Shown here in pieces: positions 21,237-63,669 of a stretch of 64,000 nt of DNA. A model generated the notes under the pieces. That model saw nothing but the letters and a program-made list of their open reading frames with translations, searched no databases and was not told the origin of the DNA. The stretch lies in contig CM057147.1 of the NCBI GenBank assembly GCA_029964075.1, positions 25,255,513 through 25,319,512 on the forward strand. The letters are read 5' to 3'. Source of the DNA: Patiria pectinifera (Eukaryota; Echinodermata; Asteroidea; Valvatida; Asterinidae). Position 1 is the first letter of the stretch. Each line of letters opens with the position of its first letter. Made by a program: the position numbers and the translations under genes.

Positions 21237-21505
21237 ACAAGTGGTATGATGTCCCATTCTTCTTGTTAACGTTTCCAAAAAAGTCTTCAAGAAGACTGTC
21301 CAGTTCTTTCACAGGAAGTGTCTCGAAACGAGTGTCCCTGCCCGTTTCTTCGCAGAATTCTCGTACAACGCGGACTGCGTAGTCGGTACAACGTTTGGTG
21401 TTTGATGAGTCTTGTTCAAAAGCTAAATCTTTTATTTGTTGTTTGGAGTGGCTCAAAAACCTTTTTTTTGGGCGGAGAATCTGTGCCTCCGGGCTCAGCT
21501 GACAT
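21237..21505 (-). pseudogene. Frameshifted exon of Crypton/DUF3504-like protein
   Basis: Reading leftwards from an ATG at 21505, the frame gives MSAEPGGTDSPPKKK and then meets an A8 run. One base out of frame after that run, it continues FLSHSKQQIKDLAFEQDSSN, then TKRCTDYAVRVVREFCEE and ELDSLLEDFFGNV. This resembles the N-terminal DUF3504-like domain of Crypton tyrosine recombinases and their ZMYM/QRICH1-type relatives. The pattern I recall for those is PPKKRF, NTKR, then LxxELDxxLxxFF. The frame ends at CACTT|GTAAAAC, which could be a splice donor or a stop. The homopolymer shift and missing remainder suggest a dead copy or a sequencing error in an otherwise intact first exon. It lies 160 bases from a long palindrome. 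Confidence 0.5.
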
Positions 21506-21509
21506 GTTG

Positions 21510-22228
21510 AGGCTGATGAGGATCGTATACGAAAAAACTAACTGTGTCAGCTCTGCATTTCCGAAGTTCTGAAGGCCTAGGCACCGTTACTAGAGTCAGT
21601 CAAAACGTACACATAATCTTAATGCCGCTCGTCGCTGGCCGCCAAATTAAAGTAAATATCGTCTGCAAATGCACTGCTCCCTCACTGCTATACATTATAT
21701 TGTGGAACGTGAAAGTACTGCGGGGTACCAGTGAGTACAAGTATACTCTGGTTTAAACGCGGTCCGCGCATAATGATTTGGACTGTGGGGCGGGGACTAG
21801 TCTACATGCATGTGATATCACAATGTGATATACAACGGGAGTGTGCCATGCATATTTATCGCCCGGTCAGCTGATCGTCCTGGGCCAATGAAAATACAGT
21901 ATAAAGACAGAGGTATGACAATGTGGCTTACAAACCCGAGCCCACAAGTGAAGGCACTTTCTTGACACTGATAGTGTGCAATGGAGTGACGATTGCTCGC
22001 CTGCAAATAACTTGATCTTTGTCAACATGCACATCCATGTGATCAACCCACCAGAGCATACACGTTTACACTTGGCAGAAAACGGCACTGAAGTGCCCTC
22101 ACCTACATTTCTATAAAAGATAGTGTAAATAGACAAGTTATTGTTCGACTTCATGCTTCCTCTTTTTTCGTAACTGCTCTAATTTGATCTGTGCGTTGTT
22201 TCCAACTAAAGAAACCCAACCCTGTTAA
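21510..22228. other. No gene seen
   Basis: Short stretch between the Crypton-like exon and MITE A copy 2, with no recognised feature. Confidence 0.45.
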
Positions 22229-38610: not shown

Positions 38611-38854
38611 CTTGCAGGGTTCTTGTCATGATGGTTCCCGCAGGATCTGGCCACTGCCGGCGGATGATAATTAAAGGGGAAGTTGACCGCTGTGGCCACG
38701 GCCGTTGGGCTTTTCTGCGGCGGGCTGGGGCTGACGTCCCGCGGGGTACTCCAGGGGCTACTGGGAGCCCCTCGGGGGCTGGACCGGGTGGTGTTGTACG
38801 TGTTGGTACGGGGCGAGGCGTCTCTTGAACGGCCGGAATGCTTGACTTGTACAC
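38611..38854 (-). CDS. Coding exon, Ser/Pro/Arg-rich, last one found
   Basis: Encodes residues 738-818. The acceptor is TGTTTGTTCACAG and the donor GCAAG|GTAAAAC, leaving in phase 2. It reads VQVKHSGRSRDASPRTNTYN and continues through many SP/TP sites (SSPRG, SSPWSTP, SPSPPQKSP), likely proline-directed phosphorylation sites. It is GC-rich, unlike its surroundings, which supports real coding. The other two frames are open for part of its length but do not match the phase. The next exon downstream was not found in the remaining 38 kb. Confidence 0.75.
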
Positions 38855-51559: not shown

Positions 51560-51801
51560 GGGGCCAATTTCACGGCCCTGCTAAGCACAAAAAATTGCTT
51601 AGCACAACAAAAATATGGCTTATAAAAGCAGGTTACCAGCCAAAACTCCATGTCATGTATGTTGCTTGTGATTAGTATTCACCTGTTGTTTGCTTAGCAT
51701 GGAAATCACATGGAGTTTTGGCTGGTAACCTGCTTTTATAAGCCATATTTTTTGTGTGCTAAGCAAATTTGTGTGCTTAGCAGCGCCGTAAAATTGGGCC
51801 C
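51560..51801. mobile_element. Palindromic MITE, GGGCCCAATTT ends
   Basis: Ends GGGGCCAATTTCACGGCCCT and GGCGCTGCTAAG-type RC (AAATTGGGCCC at the right). The arms pair over about 110 bases (CTGCTAAGCACA, GCTTATAAAAGCAGGTTACC, GCCAAAACTCCATG) around a 40-base centre. Confidence 0.75.
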
Positions 51802-52007: not shown

Positions 52008-52139
52008 CGTTGTGATGTCGGTGGCCTTTGCTCCGTCCGTTCTTGGATTGTCTGTTTGGTGGACTACCAGTCTCGGACTTGGAGGGGATGGCCCGTACGC
52101 TGTCCATATCACTGGTGACATCATCTTCTGTCTCTCCAT
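52008..52139 (-). CDS. Coding exon, degenerate motif and basic tail
   Basis: Encodes residues 694-737 and is phase 1 at both ends. The acceptor is CATTCTCATTTCAG and the donor AACG|GTAAGACC (strong). It starts DGETEDDVTSDMDSVRAIPS, which looks like the first half of the repeat motif (SDMDSV) without the TExxExxF half. It ends in a Lys/Arg/His-rich tail (SKNGRSKGHRHHN). Its donor is in phase with the exon at 38611-38854. The intron between them is 13 kb and full of MITEs, so intervening exons cannot be excluded. Confidence 0.75.
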
Positions 52140-52239
52140 CTGAAATGAGAATGATTCAGACGTAATACTACAGAGAAGATTCTTGCAATCTACAAACTTG
52201 AAAATGCCTCTGAAAATGCCTCTGAACAACGACACTGAA

Positions 52240-52330
52240 AAAGTGGGAAACCGTCAATGTAGGGCAGGATAGCTCAGGTTCAGATCCCACTCACGTCAAA
52301 TCGTTTTTCAACTTTATGATTACCAACTAT
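52240..52330 (+). mobile_element. SINE relic, internally deleted
   Basis: GTCAATGTAGGGCAGGATAG, then CTCAGGTTCAGATCCCACTC. The left flank (GACACTGAAAAAGTGGG) and tail (GTCAAATCGTTTTTCAACTTT) match those of 60043-60185. The part between the A and B boxes is missing. Confidence 0.45.
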
Positions 52331-52500
52331 TACTTGGGACTTCTGCGGCCTAATTGTCTAGAGACTAAAACTTTGAGTCCAGCCTGCAAGTTGAAATGAG
52401 ATTGTCCTTGGGCATGACACTTTTTTCGAGTACTGCCTCTCTTTATCAAGGAAAGGATAGGTACCTGTACCTGTCAGGATTTTTTACATGGTAATATGCT

Positions 52501-53593
52501 CAGAGATGCCACAGGGTCTGCTTGAAAAAAACGGAACTGGGTGTGCTTGAAAAAAAACCGGAACAGCTGCTTGAAAAAAACGGACTTTTTTGTGGGTGAA
52601 AAAGCCACTCCGTGTCCGACACAAAGTCCCCGTTGTCATCTTTATCTTGTAGCCAAGCCAAGTTCTGTTTATTTTTTAATTGTGCTTCTATGGCCTTTAA
52701 AGCTGTCGGTTCGTTCAATCACTTTGACTTTTTCCATATTCCTAATATTTATTCTGCCTACCCGAATTTCCAACGTAACATTCGACACGAAACATGCATG
52801 ATTCCACAACACTGGGCAAGTTCGCGCAAGGACTATAGTTAACCATTGGTCGACTAACGCTTGCCCGAACTCTGTCTAGTTGACGATGGTTAACTACGCT
52901 AGTCGACTATTTGGAACCAACCTACTGGGGTTGGTTGCTTCGCTGGTAACCATAGCCGCGCGGGTTCATAACGTACAGCGTGGAGCCAGGATCCAGACGT
53001 TTTGCAATGACATTTTGACCAGCATTCGACTAGAGACGTTCGCACTTTGCTATAAGTGCGCAGGCGTAAGGTACGTCACAAATCAACCACTAGTCGACTA
53101 ATGGTCCTTGCCCGAACTTGGCCACTGCTGTCGGTGTACATGATCCTTGCACTACGCGTACGCGATGCGCTCAACGAAAACATGGTTGGTACCCGCATTT
53201 TTTATTCTGTATTTCTTATTTTTTTTTTTTTTAATTTTTATTCTTTATTTTGTATTCACATAAATCACTGCGATCGGAAACCACCGATAGCTGAAATGAT
53301 AGACTTGATATCCAGGCTGAATGCTTTGTGCGCTTAGCACACAACACGCCTAAGTACGTTGGCCGCTTGTATTGCATGCAGGCTCGGCAACAACATACAC
53401 AAAGACTGTTTTTAAGACTACTTCAACGAACAACGTTGTGCCATGCCTGCGCCTAAATGAGGTAAAAATCAATGCATTTCCACAGTTTTTCTTCTCTTTT
53501 TCTGGTTAATTTGACGGCCGGAAAAAACGGAATTTTGTGAGATTTTTTGTAAAATCCGGAATTCCGGTTAAAACCGGAAAAGTGGCATCTCTG
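52501..53593. mobile_element. 1.1 kb TIR element with 6 bp TSD
   Basis: Ends CAGAGATGCCAC and GTGGCATCTCTG, flanked by TATGCT (52495-52500 and 53594-53599). The left end has a triplicated GCTTGAAAAAAACGGA; the right end reads CCGGAATTCCGGTTAAAACC. A second element (52810-53127) lies inside. Confidence 0.65.
52810..53127. mobile_element. Nested TIR element
   Basis: CACTGGGCAAGTTCGCGCAA and CCTTGCCCGAACTTGGCCAC-TG are inverted with few mismatches. GTCGACTA blocks recur in both halves. Non-coding. Confidence 0.5.
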
Positions 53594-53783
53594 TATGCTT
53601 GAATGTGAAGTATATTTTGTGAATTGGCTGTATTCAAGCTAATGCGAGCGTGTGAGATATTCTCTGAATTTCTCGGGTATCAGTGCCAAAGTTCTCATGA
53701 CTCGCTTTGATTAATCTTGTTGGTTGTGCCCTCTACAACCGCGGCGGCTAGACCACAGCTTCCAGGATCGGGACCAGTTGTAT

Positions 53784-53931
53784 TAAGACTGGTTCATGCC
53801 AATTTGACGTCACGACGCATTTGCTGTGAAATTCGCCAGAGTTGAAATGTTTGTGAATTCGCAGCGTGAATACTCCCCCTGACGTCACAGATTCGCGTTC
53901 GCGTTTGCGCCGAGTATGAACCAGCCTTAAG
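53784..53931. mobile_element. MITE family L, copy 1
   Basis: About 150 bp with inverted ends GACTGGTTCATGCC and GAGTATGAACCAGCC, flanked by TTAA on both sides. GACGTCA (CRE-like) and CGCGAATTC-like blocks lie inside each arm. Confidence 0.6.
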
Positions 53932-54383
53932 GGAGATAGAAATTTGAATCCACTCACTGACCAAGAGTATGCTGATCTTTGGTGCCCCTTAAAGCATTCC
54001 CACATATTAAACATTGTAAAACTGGGTTTTTGCCAGTGGACGGGTTGCCTGATTAACCAGTTCGTGCCAGGATTATTATGACAAGAAGGGAACGGGGTGC
54101 GGGATTAATTTTCACTCGATCTCAAGCCAGGCAGGTTGAAGCCATCAAACCTTGGGCAGCACATTCATATTTTCTGCCTCGCTCCCTGTGAGTGGGTCGC
54201 TGACAGATATGTCCGGCCTCGCTCCCTGCGTGTTCATGCGTCATCTGTTCCGAATACCGGAAAACCTTTGCGTGTGTTCACATCATCCGGCACTAACTGT
54301 CTAAGGGTGAACTGGTTAAGGGTGAAACCTGGCTCCTAAAGAAATAAAGCTATTGCAACCCTTAAACTGTACAATTCTTTTAC

Positions 54384-54518
54384 CTTTTCTAGAACGTCGC
54401 ATTTTCTCTATCTTCTTCTTCCTAAGAATTGCTTGGAATTTCCTCTCCACTTCCTCCATTTGCAAAGGATCCAGGTCGCTCTGGTCTCCAAACTCATTGA
54501 AAACTCGAACCTCTGGAC
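54384..54518 (-). CDS. Coding exon with repeat motif and basic helix
   Basis: Encodes residues 649-693 and is phase 1 at both ends. The acceptor is CGCATCTTTAG and the donor AAAAG|GTAAAAG. It starts GPEVRVFNEFGDQSDLDPLQ and continues MEEVERKFQAILRKKKIEKM, then an Arg/Ser/Lys tail. This is the most helix-prone copy: acidic first half, then a strongly basic second half with hydrophobic residues every three to four positions. It could pair as a short coiled coil or bind an acidic surface. The intron above it (54519-55485) contains a degenerate tandem repeat. Confidence 0.8.
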
Positions 54519-54889
54519 CTAAAGATGCGAAAATAAGACACAGTGAAATTTCCAAAGCAAATGTGGATTGAATTTGGCATTGCTTAGGTTTTCATCAGGT
54601 GTAAAAATAGGGACCGTAACTTCAGCTTGCCATCAATGTAAATGTAAAGATTTCAAACTTGGACTTATTTTCTACACTTTAGCTGAGCTGATATTTGAGC
54701 GGGTTCAGTTTTTTTATTGTCCTGGCTTAATTTTTTTGGAGCCAGTGCTCCGTAATAAAAAAAAAAACCATCCCTGTTGGCATTGAAGGCTAAGCATTTT
54801 TATATGGTGTAAGATTTTTCTCAAGTTGACTCCTTATAATGTTGGCAAGAATTATCAAGAGGCATCATCATCACGTCAGCGTCTGGAGT

Positions 54890-55450
54890 TCTGTAATTTG
54901 TGAGGTGCAGTCAACTTTTTAGAACTTGCATTTCTGCTGCACTTTTGGTATTGTAAACCTCACAAGCATGAACCTTGTGAGGCTCTCCATCTATAAAGGT
55001 GGCAAGAGTAGTATCTCCCACATGCTGCATCCCTTATGAGATGTGAACCTCACACATTGCTTCACCTCAATTACCTCAATTTGTCAATTACCATGATTAC
55101 CTCACAAGGTGGCAAGTGCTGCACCTCACATACAAACTTAGATTGATACCTTCCTAACTCATCCTGCACTTTTTGATGTACCCTGCCCTTCTCGGCTTAC
55201 AACCAAACTGCATCTCAGCTACACCTGGTGAAATGTGAACCTCACAAGTGCTTTATCTTGCGAGGTTCTCCAATTACCTAACACAAGGTGGCTTGTGCTG
55301 CGCCTCACATGCATTGTACAAACTTAGATTGGCTAAATTTCTTTTTGATTTACCTTCCTGTCTCACTTCATAGCATCTCAGCTACTACTTGTTTAGGTGT
55401 GAACCTCACAAGCTTTTAAACCTGATGAGGTTCCTAACCTCACTATGCAT
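54890..55450. repeat. Degenerate intronic tandem repeat (~185 bp unit)
   Basis: GTGAACCTCACAAG, GAGGTTCTCC / GAGGCTCTCC, AAGGTGGC(A/T)(A/T)G and ACAAACTTAGATTG recur in order about three times between two coding exons. Confidence 0.55.
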
Positions 55451-55485
55451 GTACAAGATCAGTACAAAACGATCGACTGTGATAC

Positions 55486-55731
55486 CTTTCCTCAAAGCCT
55501 CCTGAAACTTCTCATGCACCATGCCCGTCTCGACAGACTCCAGGTCACTGGCTATGGTCACCTGGTCGAAGCTCTTGACCGGCACTCCGGCCACCTGCTT
55601 GACCATCAGGGAACGGAAGCGCTGCTCATATTCCTCAGTCTGGATAGACTCGGGGTCACTCTGGACATTTGGGGCATGTCTGCTCCTGGGGATATTGCTG
55701 AGATTTGCATATTTTGGAGAGTTGTGCTGAT
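55486..55731 (-). CDS. Coding exon with two repeat motifs
   Basis: Encodes residues 567-648 and is phase 1 at both ends. The acceptor is TTTTTTTTTTACCAG and the donor GAAAG|GTATCAC. Two motif copies are about 35 residues apart: QSDPESIQTEEYEQRFRSLM and SDLESVETGMVHEKFQEALR. The second ends one residue before the exon edge. Each copy is followed by a short hydrophobic/basic run, consistent with a short amphipathic helix after the acidic part. The preceding stretch is Asn/Pro/Arg-rich. Confidence 0.85.
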
Positions 55732-56607
55732 CTGGTAAAAAAAAACGAAACAAACTTCTCTCGGTGGATTTCGAAAACTTCTGCAAGCTATTTGTTATAA
55801 CGAACAAACTAGACATTTTTACAGAATTTGAACATCTTTCCAATTTTCTTAAAAATAATTGAAACCCTGCATGGTGGAAAATAACTTGTGGAAGGGTTGA
55901 TGTAGCACCCTTCACAAATTTTTCTTTTAAGTAGTATGAAGACAATTCTGAGTAAAGCGGCAGTGCTTCTCAGATCATCTTCCTATCAATCCAAAAAAAC
56001 ACCCGTTTTTCTACAATTTTTAGAGCGTCTTCTTTTCTCAAGTTCTCTTTGTAATGGTATAAACTGATGAGAAACGTTCCAAATGTAATGGTAGTTAAGA
56101 AATGATATAATGGTATGTCACATGGATAAGTAACCACAATGACAAACCATGAAAAAATTCTGTCAAATGTTAGTTCAATATTGCCAACTTGAATGTCATA
56201 AAATACATGATACACTCAAATGATGGTAGTGCGGTAAATCTATGCACGAGATGATGGCTGCTTAAAACTGCCAATGGGAGCTCCTAAACGGCAAATTTCT
56301 GCATGAAAAATGTTATTATGATTAGTGAAAGCGATGCGATAGATCCTTATCACACAAGTAGCCATCTGCCTAGCTTGAGGCAAGACAGATTCCAAGTGCT
56401 GATTTCTAAAAATAGAGCATGGCAAGCAAGCCAGGGTAATTCTCTACCATGGTTGCCATGCCTTTAGGACTTCCCAGACAGCTGCACATGATGCGAAATG
56501 ATATGCTTAATGATCAGCTTAAAAGAACAAGTTTGGTTAAAACTGAGCGGGAACATGTAAACTTGTGTGTTTAACACACACTGTTAAGATCAAAAATTGG
56601 TTTTTAA

Positions 56608-56986
56608 AGGCATACAGGATCATTTGGTTTTCATTCATTTTGTTTCCAATGATAACACCACTCGAAATCCAAAGAAGAATGTTCAAAACCTAACCTGTTG
56701 AAGTTTCAGCTCAGTGGCGTTACATTTTTCGAACAAACACTGAAAAATCGTGTACAACCTTTTGATCACGAAACATGATTTTGTTAATTTTACTCTTTAT
56801 TTCCAACGATCCTTCAATTAACTGATTGTTGAAAATCTCCTACATTTCATGATTTCTTCTAATTAAATGACGGCAAGCCAGACGGAGTGTTTATTAGTCC
56901 AAGTACGATCTTTAATCCAAGTAACGTTTTTTGATAATAATTAGGTAAGTTACTTTTGGAGTAAATGCAAATGATCGTATATGCCT
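56608..56986. mobile_element. MITE family C, beside an exon
   Basis: 379 bp between TTAA at 56604-56607 and 56987-56990. Inverted ends are AGGCATACAGGATCATTTG and CAAATGATCGTATATGCCT. It sits in the intron with its lower-exon-side TTAA only 15 bases from the 57006 exon edge. Confidence 0.8.
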
Positions 56987-57005
56987 TTAAGACCTCTGTT
57001 CTTAC

Positions 57006-57833
57006 CCGTTACCCTTGCGACCTCAAAATGACCCTCATAATCCTCTGTCCTGATAGAATCTGAGCCTACGTCGCTCTCTGTTACACCCTTACGGAGGTAC
57101 ATGTACTCTGGAAGACCGCTGGGTTTGGAAGTTGGCAAGGTGTTTGTCCGTTTCTTCTTGCTCCTTGATTTTCCTCTTCTGCCCATCCCCGGGACTGTCA
57201 AATGGTCAGTCTTTTTCGGAGAAGCCGACGGTATTCTCTTAGCTTCATTCCTATTGGACGGATTATTGCGTGTGGTTTTCAGTGGGCTCCTGCTTGTGGT
57301 GGATGGTGGGTCGTGCGCGACAATGCTTGTCTGGAAGACGTGCTCAAAATCCTCAGTTGCTATGGAGTCTGCGTCCATGCCTCGGCCAGCTCGCCGGTGC
57401 TCCAGGAAGGACTTGCTATCCGGCGGCAACGATTGGTGGGTTCTTCCGTTCTCACTGGAACGTATTGCGCCTGTGGTTCGTTGAGTATTGTGATTCGTCC
57501 TTGGAAGATTTTGACTTTGGTGATTGTTGCTGAGGTTTGGTGACGATTCTGCGTCAAAAAGCGGATCGGTGGTTGAGTCGGATAAAACAAGCGAGACCAT
57601 TTCCTGTATCCTCGAGGATATGTCTTGCGTTTGGTGATTGTCATCACTTTGACTTGAATCCTCAGTCCTGTTGTCGTCCGCCTCGTCTGGTACCCCACGC
57701 CGCCTGTTCCAACTCTTTGTACTGTTTGATGCTGTGGCCGAAGAAGGCAGTGACCTGTTGTGCTTTTGCAGTGCATCGTGGGTGTGTGAAGGATTGTGGG
57801 AATGCTGTGAAGGCAGTGCGTCGGTATCAGAAT
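57006..57833 (-). CDS. Largest coding exon, two repeat motifs and basic cluster
   Basis: Encodes residues 291-566 (828 nt, phase 1 at both ends). The acceptor is CTACCACACAG and the donor ACGG|GTAAGAAC, a near-consensus site. The first 150 residues are Asn/Ser/His/Gln-rich and look disordered. A motif copy (MDADSIATEDFEHVF) lies near residue 445 and a second (GSDSIRTEDYEGHFEVARV) closes the exon. Between them is a strongly basic stretch (GRRGKSRSKKKRT) that could be a nuclear localisation or nucleic-acid/lipid-binding patch. A family-C MITE ends 15 bases below the exon edge, almost touching the donor. Long open frames on the opposite strand here are shadows of this exon. Confidence 0.85.
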
Positions 57834-58589
57834 CTGTGTGGTAGCACACGCAAAAATCGGCAAAGAGAGGGAAGGGGGATGGGTGTTAAATAAGCTGCAG
57901 TTAGAGACATTAGCAATGCATGATATTAAATGTTACCTGAATCTTCAAAAATTTCATGGCACTGCTTAGCACACAATTTTCTGCGTATTTTTGTTCAGTT
58001 CAATGGCATTGTGCACAAGTGCGCCCTCGACGGTAAGAAAGAGAGAGTTGGGGGAGTCCATCGGGAGGGCAATTGAAGACACCATGCATGTGCACATTCA
58101 GAATAAATTTAGTTGTCCCGTCCACTACAAGTTTGGCTCTCAAAGAGGACAAATTCAGAGCACATAGAGACCCCCTAACTTTTTTTACTCGGCCTTAAAT
58201 AAGGCAATAAATGTGTGCTTGGCTGGTTTTAAACACTCTGTTTAAGACCGGTTGGCGTCTGGATGCTGATTTTACCCGAGCCATTCATAAATACCTTTTC
58301 GGTAAAAAAAAATCTAAACTTTTTCGGTCCAAAAGTCCCAATCAAAAATTATAAATTTCCAAACACCCCTCTGGCTATATTATGGCATGTCCATGTCGTA
58401 AACAACTCCTTCTATGGAGATTGGTGCGCGCGTACTGCGCGATGTGGCGCAGAATGCAGCTGCACCGGTGTATGTGAATTTAGGACTATGAAATACTGAC
58501 TCACTGGTAGTATTGCGCATGCCTGTGTGAGCATTGTGAATGGACATTCAACCAATAAAACGGTAACTAAAAGGCACCGGATTCTGTAA

Positions 58590-58676
58590 CTGTTTAAGCT
58601 GTTTATTGTGAGGCGCTGTGATCTTTGTAGAGCGCCATACAAATGCTTGGTATTATTATTATTATTATTATAGGAG
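58590..58676 (+). mobile_element. CR1/L2-like 3' tail with (ATT)n
   Basis: GAGGCGCTGTGATCTTTGTA, GAGCGCCATACAAATGCTTG, then GGTATTATTATTATTATTATTA (first bases). This is the usual tail of L2/CR1-type LINEs and their SINEs. Confidence 0.5.
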
Positions 58677-59195
58677 TCAAACGTTCATGTGACACTGGAA
58701 AAGTGTTTAAGACACCCAGCCGGTCTTTATCAACCAATTAAAACCGACCATGCGACGGGCTCTCGACCAATAGGAATGGGTAAACTGTCTCAGGTATTTA
58801 TGAATGGCAGCTTTTACTACATCTACATTAAAAATGATTTTTGCAATGCATACTTCTTTTGCAGCTTGGGTTTTAGTATATTTGACCCACTAAATAATGA
58901 TTTTATGAGTACTGCTGCCGCAAGTAGTTAGTTTGTTATGCAATGAATGCTTTTTGCAGAAAAACAAAGGTTAGCATTGTTGTAGTCAAGGCCATCACAA
59001 GTCCATCACAAGTCAATAACAAGTCATCCTGTCCAAAGTCAAGTCACAAGCTATTCAAATGACCTCCAACCAAGGCATTTCTTTGTCATTTTTTAAATGG
59101 TTGGTATTTGTTGAATTGACTTGAGATTTAATTTGTGATTTGGATTTTTCGATGGCCTGTACTACACAGCTGTCAAGAAAACATGATACATGTAC

Positions 59196-59291
59196 CTTGA
59201 AGATTTAGAGTCTCCTCCATTCTCATCCTGACGTCGTCGGAACAGATAGAGTCACCATCGCTGAATTCCACTAAAGCTTGGCGTTTGGAAA
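59196..59291 (-). CDS. Coding exon with first clear repeat motif
   Basis: Encodes residues 259-290. The acceptor TTTTCTAAG and donor CAAG|GTACATG are both used in phase 1. After a basic start (SKRQALVEF) it carries the motif SDGDSICSDDVRMRMEETL, a divergent copy of the SDxDSIxTExxExxF repeat with Cys-Ser in place of x-Thr. A second AG lies 20 bases inside the exon (GCTTTAG|TGG), but using it would shift the frame to a stop, so the upstream AG was preferred. Confidence 0.75.
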
Positions 59292-59972
59292 CTTAGAAAA
59301 GTAATACAAAAACCGTTTATTACACATATGAATTAACTGTTCACTACAGAATAAGCAAGTTCAGTATCCTGAATGGGATATGTGGTAATTTTAACTTCAG
59401 AATAAACTCAGGACATCAATTTTCATGAAATCAACATGTGTGCAAGATCACACACACAGCTAAAATAGTGAGCTGGATTACATATGAAAAAGCTCCCTTG
59501 AAAAAAGTCCTCCGTCATTTTTTTTTCTTTTTCTTTTTAAACGGACAAAAAAACCTAAATGTTCATGTGTAATCCTAAGCAAGCAGCAGCAATGCTTCAA
59601 AGGCTTCTTACATTTGTATGCTACATGCACTTAACATGCCCAGGGCAGGTTCATGACGTCAACATGACGTTCACAATTTTTTTTATCCTATTACGCCTCA
59701 TAAGCTTCCGTCTGAATTTGCGTACAGGATGAGCCAGCTTAATGAGGGTGCAACACACAGTGTACAGCAATCATCTTCAGAAGTACAATGCATTTGTGAC
59801 TTGAGTGCACATGCACTATCATGGTACTTAAGTCAGTCACCAAAATTTTCCCAACATTTACTATATTCAGTGGTGGATCCAGGTGGATCACCCCCCCCCC
59901 CCCCCGGGAGTGACCGATAGTTTCTCATATAAGGTTATTTTTCACTTCAGAGAGACATTGACAGGTTTGTAC

Positions 59973-60040
59973 CTGCGACGGCAGGAATACAATTCCGCTG
60001 GTTCCGGCGATTAACGGTTGAAGGCTTCTGACTAGCGTCC
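59973..60040 (-). CDS. Possible frame-breaking cassette exon (68 nt)
   Basis: On the minus strand this segment is bounded by TTTTTTCAAG and by CGCAG|GTACAAAC. One frame is open and hydrophilic (DASQKPSTVNRRNQRN...) and leaves in phase 1, matching the next exon. It would need entry in phase 2, though, whereas exon 4 leaves in phase 1. Entered in the real phase, it reads through and makes exon 59196-59291 stop at a TAG after six codons. Inclusion would therefore truncate the protein and probably trigger nonsense-mediated decay. It directly adjoins a tRNA-like SINE piece (60043 onward), whose edge supplies the pyrimidine tract. It may equally be a chance splice pair. Confidence 0.3.
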
Positions 60041-60042
60041 CT

Positions 60043-60185
60043 TGAAAAAAGACATTGACAAAATAGGGGACCACCAACATAGGGCTGGATATAGCTCTAT
60101 TGGCAGCACCGGAACAGCAACCCGGAGGTCACATGTTCAAACCCTGCTCCAGTCAATTTCTTTGTTCAACTTTAAAATAATTTAC
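60043..60185 (+). mobile_element. tRNA-like SINE next to the cassette-exon candidate
   Basis: TATAGCTCTATTGGCAGCAC (A box) and GTCACATGTTCAAACCCTGC (B box), then CAGTCAATTTCTTTGTTCAA. Related to 52240-52330. Confidence 0.55.
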
Positions 60186-60204
60186 AAAATGTGGTTTCAA
60201 GTAA

Positions 60205-60267
60205 GGTATTTCATAACAATTTGATAGTTTTGTTTTTTTGACGTTTGCAAAATGTTGTGTATTATCT
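60205..60267. mobile_element. MITE family B, terminal fragment
   Basis: About 60 bases match the right end of copy 44836-45358: AATTTGATAGTT, TTTGACGTTTGCAAAATGTTG, then ...ATCT followed by TTAA. The rest of the element is missing. It lies in the intron, 30 bases from a splice donor (60296). Confidence 0.5.
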
Positions 60268-60296
60268 TTAATTATACAGAAAGCAAAGAACTTTAC

Positions 60297-60470
60297 CCTT
60301 TTTCTTGAAGGATCTGTTGCTGCCATTCTTCAGCTTTGTCCCTTTTCCTTCTCCATTCATATCAATTTTTCCTACAGCAGACCCATGACGGACATGATTC
60401 CCATTGGGTATAGGGCTCGAGTCCCCGCGGTGGCTTCCTGTACCCAGACCAGTGTCTGAAGCACTGTCAT
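60297..60470 (-). CDS. Coding exon 4, Gly/Ser-rich then basic
   Basis: Encodes residues 201-258. The acceptor is TCTCATTGCAG and the donor AAGG|GTAAAG. It starts DDSASDTGLGTGSHRGDSSP and ends with the basic run NRSFKKK. It is phase 1 at both ends, so it can be skipped without a frame change. Its donor connects in frame to the exon at 59196-59291, giving Val at the junction. It does not connect in frame to the small exon-like segment at 59973-60040. A truncated family-B MITE end sits about 30 bases beyond the donor. Confidence 0.75.
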
Positions 60471-60559
60471 CTGCAATGAGACCATAAAAAGGTAATATGT
60501 ATATTGACCTATCAGCACCTTCACTCATTAGCCCTAACCGCCCTGTATCCTTCAAAATC

Positions 60560-60930
60560 CTCTTTGCCAAAGTGAAGGAATTGGGAGGATTGAGGTTAGA
60601 TGGCTAAAGTGAGTTACTGATTTCGTAGGATGCACTTTGTCTAGGTCTTGGGCCGGACCTTGTGTTGTTTTTGCTCAGCCATGCATAAATACATGTATAT
60701 GCATGGATTATGCTTGAAATCCTCCGTACTGCTCCAGGATGTCACTAGCCAAGCCTCGACATATTGACAGTCACTACGGCAGGATGTTGCAGGATTCAGG
60801 CAGTGGTCACCCCTCCACGGATCATATTCAAGAAATAATGGAGGAATTGGCAGGATTGAGGCTATATGCTATTTTTCCATGAGGCCAATTGGAGGATTTT
60901 GCAAGATTGAGGCTACATCCAAGCAAAAAG
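60560..60930. repeat. Short dispersed direct repeats in intron
   Basis: GGAATTGGGAGGATTGAGG (60578), GGAATTGGCAGGATTGAGGC (60843) and GGATTTTGCAAGATTGAGGC (60895) recur with flanking similarity. Confidence 0.4.
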
Positions 60931-61505
60931 GCCTAGTGAGTTAGGGTTAGCTAATGAACCCATAACACCATACAATGCTGGAATTGGTTTTGGGCGATAC
61001 AGGGAATGACAGGCAAGGCGGTTTGGGCCGTACGCAATTATATTTCTACAGCCAAGTACAGTCAATGACCATAACGCCCATGCGTCAGTTGGCAACGAAA
61101 TGGTTCTCAGACGTAACTTCCCTTTTTAAAACAAATCCTCGAGTGTCTTGAATGAGAAGAAAAGAGTACATTTTATTTTATCAATCATCAGGACTTGATT
61201 AAACAAAATTTAGGGAAGAAAATTCAATTTGGGGAAAAACATGGAACACGGAACCTGCAGCATTCAGGTGATAGGCTGCAGTGATTGGACCGCCGGCGTG
61301 CTGGCTGCAATTTGGCCAGCGGTAGCGATCAGGCAAACTGGAAAGCCGGGATTTGTTGCAGTTATGGGCTGGAGTCCAATCACAATAGCATCGTGTTTGC
61401 TGCATCCCAATGTACTCTTTAAAAAGTTTTGCAATCTTTTTGCTTCTTTGTGAGTGTTTAGGTTGCGGTTCCTTATGGACTTGTCCAACAAAAGTTCAAG
61501 TTAAA

Positions 61506-61643
61506 CAGGGGTACCGATGCGTTATTTCGAGTTACTAGGGTATTCATTTCCAAAATATCCTATTCTGTTGACAGGCTTGAAGTATCACTTCAAAATAAAC
61601 AGAGTTTCGAGTTATCAGAGTTTGCTTTATCGCGATTTCACTG
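61506..61643. mobile_element. pogo-like MITE remnant
   Basis: CAGGGGTACCGATGCGTTAT and ...TTATCGCGATTTCACTG are a decayed inverted pair with TTTCGAGTTA inside both arms. It ends about 35 bases before the 61678 donor. Confidence 0.5.
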
Positions 61644-61677
61644 TACTCTCTAATTACAAGATGACATGTACCGGTAC

Positions 61678-61822
61678 CATTGAGCGTTTCATCAGCTGTT
61701 GCATTGTCGCTGGACTCTAGTTCCTGTCTTGTCAATGTGGAGGCCTTCTGACTGTGCCTACTGGTTCCAGAACTGCTGCTGTTACCATGGTAGCTGTGCT
61801 CGCTGTGCTCACTATTAAGGCT
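61678..61822 (-). CDS. Coding exon 3, serine/histidine-rich linker
   Basis: Encodes residues 153-200. The acceptor is TTTCAAATCAG and the donor AATG|GTACCG, a weak-looking donor inside the palindrome TACCGGTAC. It begins SLNSEHSEHSYHGNSSSSGT and continues into a Ser/Thr/Ala-rich acidic stretch ending ADETLN. Only this donor restores the frame: AAT-G joins AT of exon 4 to give Asp. Composition suggests a flexible, phosphorylatable linker. The N-terminal residues come directly after the exon 2 helix. Confidence 0.7.
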
Positions 61823-62176
61823 CTGATTTGAAACAAAAATCAGAGCTTTTAATTACAAACATACTGTATATAGATTAAAAGAGTTGTGGTTAGAAAAATT
61901 AAAATGAGCTTCATTTTTTTTTTATTATAGAGAATGGAACTAACAAAGATGTGGGGAAACCCACTTGCAACTTTTGAAAGGCGAAATATTTGAATCATGT
62001 TCTTTTGATAATTGAATCAATATAGTGGACGTTTGACAGTGCTCTGAAAAATTCTCTCCTTATAAAGTAATCTCGCAATTTTGTGATTATCAAGAAAATT
62101 GTTCTAAATATCATAGATATCAGTAAGTCAATTGACTATTATCTCAGCCAAAACAGTCTTAAAACCTATTATTACT

Positions 62177-62319
62177 CAGGCATGCAACTGGGAATTTTGA
62201 AAAAACGAGGAAATTCCTAATCACACAAGACTTTGTACAGCGTTTTTCAATTTGTAATGGCATCCATGAGAAGAAAAAAACGAGGAAACCAGCAGATCCG
62301 AGGAAAAGTTGCATGCCTG
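62177..62319. mobile_element. MITE family I with ATTACT duplication
   Basis: 143 bp. Ends CAGGCATGCAACT and AGTTGCATGCCTG are perfect inverted repeats. ATTACT flanks both sides (62171-62176 and 62320-62325). Relatives lie at 27105-27247 and about 1650-1715. Confidence 0.75.
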
Positions 62320-62463
62320 ATTACTCTGCAGAAGCTGTCTTTTTTCCTAGATTACTGTTGCCACACATGTTGCTTTCTCAAACAGTGAGTCCGAAAAACT
62401 TACATGTATCGTAATATTTTATACACGTATATTCTGCAACTGGTTTTCATCACAAAAGCTCAC

Positions 62464-62861
62464 CCTGTTGATGATGTCGTTCAGTTCTGCATCTATATTA
62501 TCCAGTATCAGATCCACATGGTGCATGTTGATCACCGTTTGTCGCTTCTCGTTCACCACTGGTTCCCCGCCTTCCATGGTCTCCCCAGAAGCCTCAAGTC
62601 TCCCCTCCGGTGGTCCTTCTGCCTCATCTCCACCCACAACCTCCGAATGATGATGCTCTGATGAGTTGTAGCTATTATCATCTTCTTCTTCTTCTTCTTC
62701 TTCTCCTTCTGAGGAGTGATCGTGGTTGGCCGGGAGTCCGTCAGAGTCCACCGCGTTGCCGTTTTCGGTTTGGTCTTCGTAGTTCATGTTGTTCTCTTCT
62801 GTGCGATGGCCTGCGGCTTCAAAACTCTCAAACTCGCCCTCTGAGGTCTCTGACTGGGAGT
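62464..62861 (-). CDS. Coding exon 2, poly-glutamate acidic region
   Basis: Encodes residues 20-152. The acceptor CTCTTTTAG and donor AACAGG|GTGAGC are both good. It opens with SQSETSEGEFESFEAAG and then holds a run of seven Glu followed by Asp-Asp, encoded by a (GAA/GAG) repeat visible on the plus strand as CTTCTTCTTCTT, a likely length polymorphism. His/Ser-rich and Gly/Glu-rich stretches follow. The last 20 residues (DLILDNIDAELNDII core) are the only amphipathic, helix-like segment and would be a reasonable binding helix. It ends in phase 0, unlike most later exons. No family was recognised. Confidence 0.8.
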
Positions 62862-63611
62862 CTAAAAGAGTACCAGAGAGCAACAGTAAGAACACAATTT
62901 TTTCATAACACCATTGTAAATGAACGTCAATAATAACTCACATGTATGTAAAGCCATTGCATGTTAATGTTAGCACCATAGAATTAAAAACTTAAATGAC
63001 AGGGGATGAAAACTCAAGACTATGCATAAAACACCTATAGACCCTTTTAAACAATCTGACACTAATTCCTACCCTCTGTTTGCCTGTATACCCAAAAATG
63101 ATGTACGTCTTACTCTGTCCTGCCCATACACACAGTAATAAGGCCAGGCTAGACATCCATCAACATCAGCTAGGACAGCCGAACATAATATAATGTGATT
63201 ACGGGCGCATATGGCCTGCAGGGTCTCATAGTTGTAATTGAATGTCAAGCCGTGAGTCAACCACGAGTCAATCACAATTAAGTCAAGTCACAAGCCACGT
63301 CACAAGTACATTATAGCCAAAGCAATTGTTCATTCGTTTATAAATTTGTTTATTTGTTCAATTCAAACAACATCCAACAGCGCATGAGCACCAGAGACGG
63401 AAGGATGAAAAATACAAGTACAATAAAAATTTAATAAAAACATTCGAACAGCTCATCACTCAACTGACTAGACTGAATGACTTGCCAAACAGTGTGTTTA
63501 ACTTGTAATAACTCGATTAAAAGTCAGCCCTGTTTTTTAGAGAAAAGGCCAGTTTAACCCTGATTCAGGCCTCCTTCCCAAAGCCTAATAGTTTGCCAGT
63601 TCATGACTCAC

Positions 63612-63669
63612 CTGGCTCTGTGAGGTCTGACTCCCTGCTCAGGTCCTGATCACTCCATGACCCGTTCAT
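63612..63669 (-). CDS. Coding exon 1 (start), acidic N-terminus
   Basis: Encodes residues 1-19, starting MNGSWSDQDLSRESDLTEP, then one base of a split codon. The donor is CCAG|GTGAG. The start was chosen because an in-frame TGA lies a few codons upstream in the same exon and no other in-frame ATG intervenes. The sequence is Ser/Asp/Glu rich. Together with the start of exon 2 it forms a degenerate copy of the repeated motif (DSQSETSEGEFESF). The split codon G|AC gives Asp20 and joins exon 2 cleanly. Confidence 0.75.

What the first reader, a model, noticed from the sequence alone, without database searches (positions are those of the whole stretch)
52008..63669. Unrecognised protein built around a repeated SDxDSIxTExxExxF motif
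Seen: copies in exon 59196 (SDGDSICSDDVRMRMEETL), exon 57006 (MDADSIATEDFEHVF; GSDSIRTEDYEGHF), exon 55486 (SDPESIQTEEYEQRF; SDLESVETGMVHEKF) and exon 54384 (SDLDPLQMEEVERKF), with half copies in exon 52008 (SDMDSV) and the exon 1/2 junction. An acidic/Ser half is followed by an amphipathic, often basic half. I know no named family with this repeat. Inference: repeated short linear motifs that each dock the same partner, or are phosphorylated at the S/T positions.
Basis: partly seen in the sequence, partly recalled or inferred. Interest (0 to 1): 0.72.

Follow-up and report, generated by a model that had tools for sequence, protein, structure and literature searches.

The report
Disordered protein with repeated helical motif
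A gene in an animal genome appears to encode a floppy, acidic protein carrying six copies of a short, probably helix-forming motif that matched no catalogued family searched here, so it may be a scaffold that grips one partner at several points.

Summary
A minus-strand multi-exon gene lies at 63669-52008. The repeat signal exceeds all shuffles (0 of 200, twice), and each copy is recovered by a profile of the other five. The half copy SDMDSV is unlikely by chance; the exon 1/2 one is not supported. Pfam and PDB sequence searches explain none of it. A search of the own genome listed no second copy of the gene. Two exons folded singly show helices starting inside the motif. The second half is basic in only 2 of 6 copies. 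Best reading: a disordered scaffold with repeated helical docking motifs, partner unknown. Resemblance to the actin-filament motif (Lifeact/SFM) is weak and fails at P1. The gene probably runs on to exon 10 (38854-38611). It may join a giant exon outside the window with a divergent KRAP (IP3-receptor-binding) core; that link is undecided. No transcripts or related genomes were available.

The parts
63612..63669 (-). exon 1 (start codon; MNGSWSDQDLSRESDLTEP)
   Evidence: ATG, donor AG|gtgagt, phase 1 out
62464..62861 (-). exon 2, acidic, ends in a hydrophobic stretch HHVDLILDNIDAELNDIINR
61678..61822 (-). exon 3
   Evidence: not chosen by the exon-chaining script
60297..60470 (-). exon 4
   Evidence: not chosen
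59196..59270 (-). exon 5, with motif copy 1 and the KKVEF (RVxF-like) stretch over its 5' junction
   Evidence: not chosen
59218..59262 (-). motif copy 1 SDGDSICSDDVRMRM (most divergent)
57006..57833 (-). exon 6, motif copies 2 and 3
   Evidence: one search uses another acceptor (57804)
57334..57378 (-). motif copy 2 MDADSIATEDFEHVF
57025..57069 (-). motif copy 3 VGSDSIRTEDYEGHF; six whole codons lie between its F and a phase-1 donor
55486..55731 (-). exon 7, motif copies 4 and 5
   Evidence: one search uses another donor (55444)
55616..55660 (-). motif copy 4 SDPESIQTEEYEQRF
   Evidence: predicted helix from its T
55505..55549 (-). motif copy 5 SDLESVETGMVHEKF; six whole codons lie between its F and a phase-1 donor
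   Evidence: predicted helix
54384..54518 (-). exon 8, motif copy 6 and basic tail
54436..54480 (-). motif copy 6 SDLDPLQMEEVERKF
   Evidence: predicted helix 17-43 of exon 8, mean pLDDT 87
52008..52139 (-). exon 9, half copy SDMDSV at 52113-52096
38611..38854 (-). candidate exon 10 (GVQVKHSGRSRDASPRT...HHDKNPA), phase 1 in and phase 2 out; or last exon, because a TAA stop follows at once

Best explanation
The exons encode one largely disordered, Ser/Asp/Glu-rich protein of at least 730 (probably 811 or more) residues. It works as a multivalent scaffold. Each of six motif copies is a short docking unit: an acidic, Ser-containing cap (SDx[DE]S) that ends a disordered stretch, followed by a helix whose [YFV]...F pair faces one shared partner. 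Several weak copies in one chain would give avidity, and phosphorylation of the cap could tune it. The array probably grew by duplication of exons with phase-1 borders. Shown: the copies, their exon places, the disorder-like composition. Predicted, for exons 7 and 8 only and from single sequences: the helix. Inferred: docking, avidity, phosphorylation, exon duplication. The partner is unknown.
For: Six copies beyond chance. Composition on the disordered side of the Uversky line: H 0.364, boundary 0.430 (formula recalled). Exon 7 predicted helices 31-46, 59-64 and 70-80, the first beginning inside copy 4 and the last inside copy 5 (mean pLDDT 62). Exon 8 predicted as one helix 17-43 beginning at the DP of copy 6 (mean pLDDT 87). 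No Pfam family over its cut-off for the whole or the pieces. Exons 4 to 9 (6 of 6) are phase 1 in and phase 1 out, taking exon 10's entry phase for the end of exon 9. In exons 6 and 7 exactly six whole codons separate the last motif F from the donor, which fits exon duplication.
Against: No relative in another species could be compared, so conservation of the motif is untested. Both structure predictions used one sequence each, and exons 5 and 6 (copies 1-3) were not folded. Amphipathicity is unremarkable in 3 of 6 copies (37th, 6th and 55th percentile). Copy 1 is divergent and its exon was not chosen by the gene-finding script. In exons 5 and 8 the distance from motif to donor is 7 and 17 codons, not 6. 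No partner is known.
Confidence: 0.5

Rival explanations
1. The motif is a form of the short actin-filament-binding motif (SFM, as in Lifeact and ITPKA), so the protein is a multivalent anchor to actin filaments.
For: In the SFM register P4 is hydrophobic or aromatic in 6 of 6 copies, P8 is F in 5 of 6, P9 is E or Q in 5 of 6. Of 36 registers only this one gives all six copies a positive score against Lifeact (sum 45, next best 1). Copy 6 is the most Lifeact-like 13-mer of 799 and the only stretch of the 811 aa to fit [VILM]xx[LIVMFY]xxx[FY][EQ]. SFM repeats occur in PLEKHG3 and SORBS1/2 (PMC13364712, passages).
Against: P1, Val in the published motif, is T in 4, S in 1 and M in 1 of 6; peptides mutated at P1 and P8 together lost localisation (PMC13364712, passage). 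Copy 6's score of 20 is reached by 63 of 1000 shuffles of the protein and 112 of 1000 block shuffles. The six-copy sum of 45 is reached by 180 of 5000 shuffled Lifeact peptides, 38 of 553 13-mers of a coiled-coil gene, 47 of 1885 of the giant exon and 31 of 1622 of the C2 protein; without copy 6 the sum of 25 is reached by 443 of 5000 and 65 of 553. The part of the motif before the helix is unexplained.
Confidence: 0.12
2. The window exons are the first part of a larger protein: exon 10 splices to the giant exon downstream of the window, which carries a divergent KRAP (IP3-receptor-binding) core, so the motif array sits on a second ITPRID-like protein and tethers IP3 receptors to the motif's partner.
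For: Same strand and next long coding stretch; exon 10 ends in phase 2 and the giant exon opens in phase 2, its first Met being residue 137. Joined, the frame is open for 2709 aa. The giant exon's EDVLINLGFGG...IPSRFLK aligns with the KRAP exon of the genome's true ITPRID gene on C2 (score 57; shuffles mean 33, maximum 49, 0 of 500). Its best motif-like place is DSLQIKDFE in 6 of 8 cuts of the motif.
Against: A TAA stop follows exon 10 directly (AGG TAA), and the chaining script closed the gene there. A 42 kb intron would be needed. A rival start exon, MAGKQLEGGTAVISWQQRSMELDLEVSKQ at 27409-27321, also phase 2 out, stands between, and an in-frame Met lies 42 codons before the supposed acceptor with no stop between. 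For a seventh copy the best place has p 0.014 to 0.6 over eight cuts, and in two of them it is another place; the 20-column profile is not beyond shuffles, the 12- and 10-column profiles have p 0.32 and 0.05. The KRAP core is below Pfam's cut-off (11.8 against 27 bits) and appears only when an 89-aa piece is given, not with the 333-aa or 627-aa pieces that hold it. BLASTP of the two regions did not align the core (best E 0.17, elsewhere). The genome-wide PF14722 search did not list it.
Confidence: 0.3
3. The exons belong to two or more genes, or some (3, 4, 5) are not exons, so the array is smaller than six copies.
For: The chaining script skips exons 3-5; no transcripts available.
Against: Exons 4-9 keep one phase throughout. 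Exons 6-9 are kept, two with one border moved. Five copies remain without exon 5.
Confidence: 0.15
4. The copies are remnants of a known fold (SAM helix 1 or an EF-hand loop) that looks like a repeat.
For: The motif profile's PDB matches (19 at E<=10) include the start of the EphA8 SAM domain (LDSIRMGRYRDHF, E 0.68-0.88); best is a PKD-domain protein (E 0.014). The SAM stretch scores 106 against the six copies, more than Lifeact's 45, though it was picked from the PDB for its likeness.
Against: No SAM or EF-hand match in Pfam for the whole or for ten pieces at E<=10 (HMMER's filters drop most weak matches). By eye the rest of a SAM domain does not follow the copies. Foldseek with the exon 7 model: 2 matches at E<=10, none at 0.001.
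Confidence: 0.05

Closest known systems
[quoted passage not shown] PMC13364712)
   Same: short helix in a disordered chain, hydrophobic P4, F at P8, E/Q at P9; can be repeated in one protein
   Different: P1 is T/S/M, not V; an acidic Ser cap precedes the helix; similarity to Lifeact is near chance
KRAP/ITPRID2-TESPA1 family (PF14722)
   Same: nothing in the window itself; the giant exon further on has a related core
   Different: no KRAP domain found in the window protein (alignment score 29, below the mean of 33 for the shuffled giant exon); the genome's clear ITPRID gene is on C2
SAM domain, helix 1 (e.g. EphA8)
   Same: I-x-[TM]-x-x-Y-x-x-x-F spacing
   Different: no Pfam match, no further SAM helices by eye
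PP1-docking RVxF motif (pattern recalled)
   Same: one KKVEF stretch at the exon 4/5 junction, just before copy 1
   Different: only one site; not part of the repeat; binding untested

Membership tests
SFM actin-filament motif | Val at P1 | tested here: not met
   0 of 6 copies; T 4, S 1, M 1
SFM actin-filament motif | hydrophobic residue (Leu) at P4 | tested here: inconclusive
   V, F, Y, Y, V, V: hydrophobic or aromatic 6 of 6, Leu 0 of 6
SFM actin-filament motif | Phe at P8 | tested here: met
   5 of 6, M in copy 1
SFM actin-filament motif | Glu at P9 | tested here: inconclusive
   E 2, Q 3, R 1 of 6
SFM actin-filament motif | binds actin filaments, predicted complex with actin | not testable with these tools
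   only single window or locus proteins can be folded
KRAP_IP3R_bind (PF14722), window exons | KRAP domain over the Pfam cut-off | tested here: not met
   0 Pfam families at E<=10 in 730 aa and in the exon 10 piece
KRAP_IP3R_bind (PF14722), giant exon outside the window | KRAP domain over the Pfam cut-off of 27 bits | tested here: not met
   11.8 bits, E 0.23, as an 89-aa piece; nothing with longer pieces
KRAP_IP3R_bind (PF14722), giant exon outside the window | Phe-Phe pair on which Tespa1-IP3R1 binding depends (F187/F188, PMC5472764, passage) | tested here: not met
   F-L in the giant exon (IPSRFL) and also in the C2 gene that passes the Pfam cut-off (IPNRFL)
ITPRID C-terminal domain SSFA2_C (PF14723) | match in this genome | tested here: inconclusive
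   0 matches anywhere in the genome, the C2 ITPRID gene included, and none in the control genomes
SAM domain | match to the domain family | tested here: not met
EF-hand | match to the domain family | tested here: not met
PP1 regulators (RVxF) | RVxF docking sequence | tested here: met
   one match, KKVEF at aa 257-261; binding not tested

The most novel reading that the evidence does not exclude
The window exons, exon 10 and the giant exon form one protein of about 2,700 residues or more: a second, divergent ITPRID-like family that carries an array of six or seven helical docking motifs in front of an IP3-receptor-binding core, so that clustered receptors would be held by a multivalent, phosphorylation-tuned tether.
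Probability: 0.25. Interest if true: 0.6.

Novelty: new variant of a known kind. Interest (0 to 1): 0.4.

Why it matters
Arrays of repeated short motifs are how many scaffolds get avidity (general knowledge). A six-copy array in an unnamed protein gives its own internal alignment: which positions are kept among copies (the [DE][SP][IVL] cap, the [YFV]...F pair) is visible from one gene, which makes peptide tests easy to design. If it is the front part of an IP3-receptor-associated protein, it would bear on how receptors are tethered.

Tried and rejected
Considered and dropped. (1) A link between the repeat and a motif of vertebrate ITPRID2/TESPA1 proteins that I recalled (DSFEMEEVQS-like): what I took as its counterpart in the predicted protein of the genome's own ITPRID gene, ESFEIEEISS, ranks 9 of 1626, 21 of 1624 or 235 of 1616 by three cuts of the profile, so not supported; a paper search with such strings found 0 papers. 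(2) A seventh copy in the giant exon: not significant by the 20-column profile, borderline by other scores. (3) Lifeact resemblance as strong evidence: removed by controls. (4) SAM, EF-hand and several docking motifs weighed from memory. (5) Relatives elsewhere, with exon 6 as query: genome contigs 34 pattern matches, none confirmed; viral contigs no pattern match. Both collections are ill suited to an animal gene. (6) Own-genome search with the 811 aa at E<=1: 15 candidates scored, 11 matches, 10 of them its own exons and one on C16 at E 0.126. A distant gene sharing only the short motif would be missed. (8) Motif strings in papers: 0 papers. (9) A search for invertebrate ITPRID literature showed nothing relevant in the 10 of 1,674 papers listed.

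Corrections on the way: one search misplaced the end of exon 3 by one base (mended); one search misplaced the end of exon 10 (mended), which does not touch its repeat statistic on the 730 aa.
Full report
What is there. The window is G000:C19:25255513-25319512 of a 613.5 Mb genome in 1020 contigs. On the minus strand nine exons, 63669-52008, splice with GT/AG borders into an open frame of 730 residues starting at an ATG. A tenth exon at 38854-38611 fits in phase, giving 811 residues; directly after it comes either a donor (AAG|gtaaaa) or, if unspliced, a TAA stop. The protein is rich in Ser, Glu, Asp and Asn with very little Cys or Trp, and falls on the disordered side of a charge-hydropathy line.

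Is the repeat real. A statistic that needs no motif in advance picked the six named copies, with a score of 163 against a shuffle mean of 118 and maximum of 147 (0 of 200; block shuffles 0 of 200). Three overlapping 730-residue pieces of the neighbouring giant exon scored 105-110. With a profile made from the other five, each of the 6 copies ranked above every place but those five; the weakest is copy 1 with 11.5 bits. The half copy SDMDSV in exon 9 is not expected by chance (65 of 5000 shuffles hold any such half copy). The one at the exon 1/2 junction is not supported. A six-frame scan of 284 kb of this genome found no other stretch above 13.5 bits.

How it is built. Exons 4 to 9 all begin and end in phase 1. 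In exons 6 and 7 six whole codons lie between the last motif F and the phase-1 donor; in exon 5 it is seven and in exon 8 seventeen. This fits growth by duplication of phase-1 exons; it is an inference. Folded alone, exon 7 shows helices beginning inside copies 4 and 5 (mean pLDDT 62) and exon 8 one long helix beginning at the Asp-Pro of copy 6 (mean pLDDT 87). Exons 5 and 6 were not folded. So the acidic Ser half looks like the cap of a helix, at least in copies 4-6. The second half is clearly basic in only 2 of 6 copies, and the helix part is amphipathic beyond the 80th percentile in 3 of 6.

The actin idea. A 2026 paper (PMC13364712; I read the abstract, sections 8, 9, 11, 12 and 15, and passages) defines an actin-filament motif VxxLxxxFE, strongest at P1 and P8. 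In that register our copies have hydrophobic or aromatic P4 (6 of 6), F at P8 (5 of 6) and E/Q at P9 (5 of 6), and no other register comes near. But P1 is never V. The resemblance of copy 6 to Lifeact is reached by 63 of 1000 shuffles, and 38 of 553 unrelated coiled-coil 13-mers match the six copies as well as Lifeact does. It stays a rival, not a filing.

The KRAP idea. Beyond the window on the same strand lies a single open frame of 1918 residues with EDVLINLGFGG...IPSRFL. Aligned to the KRAP exon of the genome's true ITPRID gene on C2 it scores 57, shuffles at most 49 (0 of 500), so I take it as related. Against this: it is below Pfam's cut-off and seen only in an 89-aa piece, BLASTP did not align the core, the genome-wide family search did not list it, and it has F-L where Tespa1 needs F-F (PMC5472764, passages), as the C2 gene also has. 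KRAP ties IP3 receptors to actin (PMC8302619, title and passages), and the KRAP domain is named as a possible metazoan innovation (PMC7016017, one passage). PMC13364712 cites the first KRAP paper as its reference 79, inside the range 74-90 given for SFM candidates known to bind actin only by indirect methods; that human KRAP is one of its 103 candidates is my inference, as the supplement was not open to me. Exon 10 could splice into the giant exon in phase 2. But a stop follows exon 10, a rival start exon lies between, an in-frame Met lies 42 codons before the giant exon's supposed acceptor, and the seventh-copy signal is borderline. I cannot decide this.

Gene-model caveat. A small exon-chaining script, partly trained on these exons, kept exons 1, 2, 8 and 9 as drawn, shifted one border each of 6 and 7, skipped 3-5, and closed the gene at exon 10. 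Even so, five of six copies remain in chosen exons.

Verdict. The partner, the phosphorylation and the exact length are open. The repeat appears undescribed in the libraries searched; that it is not in print rests only (string searches, 0 papers).

Noticed in passing
L004:651-6408 (minus strand; G000:C19:25246163-25251920, outside the window): A single open frame of 1918 aa with a divergent KRAP-like core (EDVLINLGFGG...IPSRFL), apart from the genome's clear ITPRID gene on C2.
   Followed up: partly
L017 and L019-L027 (G000:C2:2543001-2633000): The genome's clear ITPRID gene: KRAP exon 46.6 bits, over the cut-off; predicted exons end in coiled-coil-like sequence.
   Followed up: partly
51560-51656 and 51705-51801: Foldback element just beyond exon 9: 97-nt arms, 92% complementary.
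   Followed up: no
54927-55412: Diverged direct repeats with an AACCTCACAAG-like core between exons 7 and 8.
   Followed up: no
59196-59270 with 60297-60470 (minus): KKVEF, an RVxF-like PP1-docking sequence made by the exon 4/5 junction just before motif copy 1.
   Followed up: no
G000:C19 about 42.6-45.9 kb below window base 1 (minus): Long Ser/Lys-rich open frame holding two nearly identical halves in tandem, by eye; I guessed HIRIP3 from memory, and Pfam gave nothing for the short neighbouring piece.
   Followed up: no
G000:C19 about 55-56 kb below window base 1 (minus): PTB/PID-domain gene (PF14719, E 3.1e-11); further PTB-like frames nearby on both strands by eye.
   Followed up: no
21238-21537 (minus): Open frame with ...RFETLPVKELDSLLEDFFGNVNKKNGTSYHL, mobile-element-like by eye; Pfam gave only two weak matches below cut-off.
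   Followed up: no
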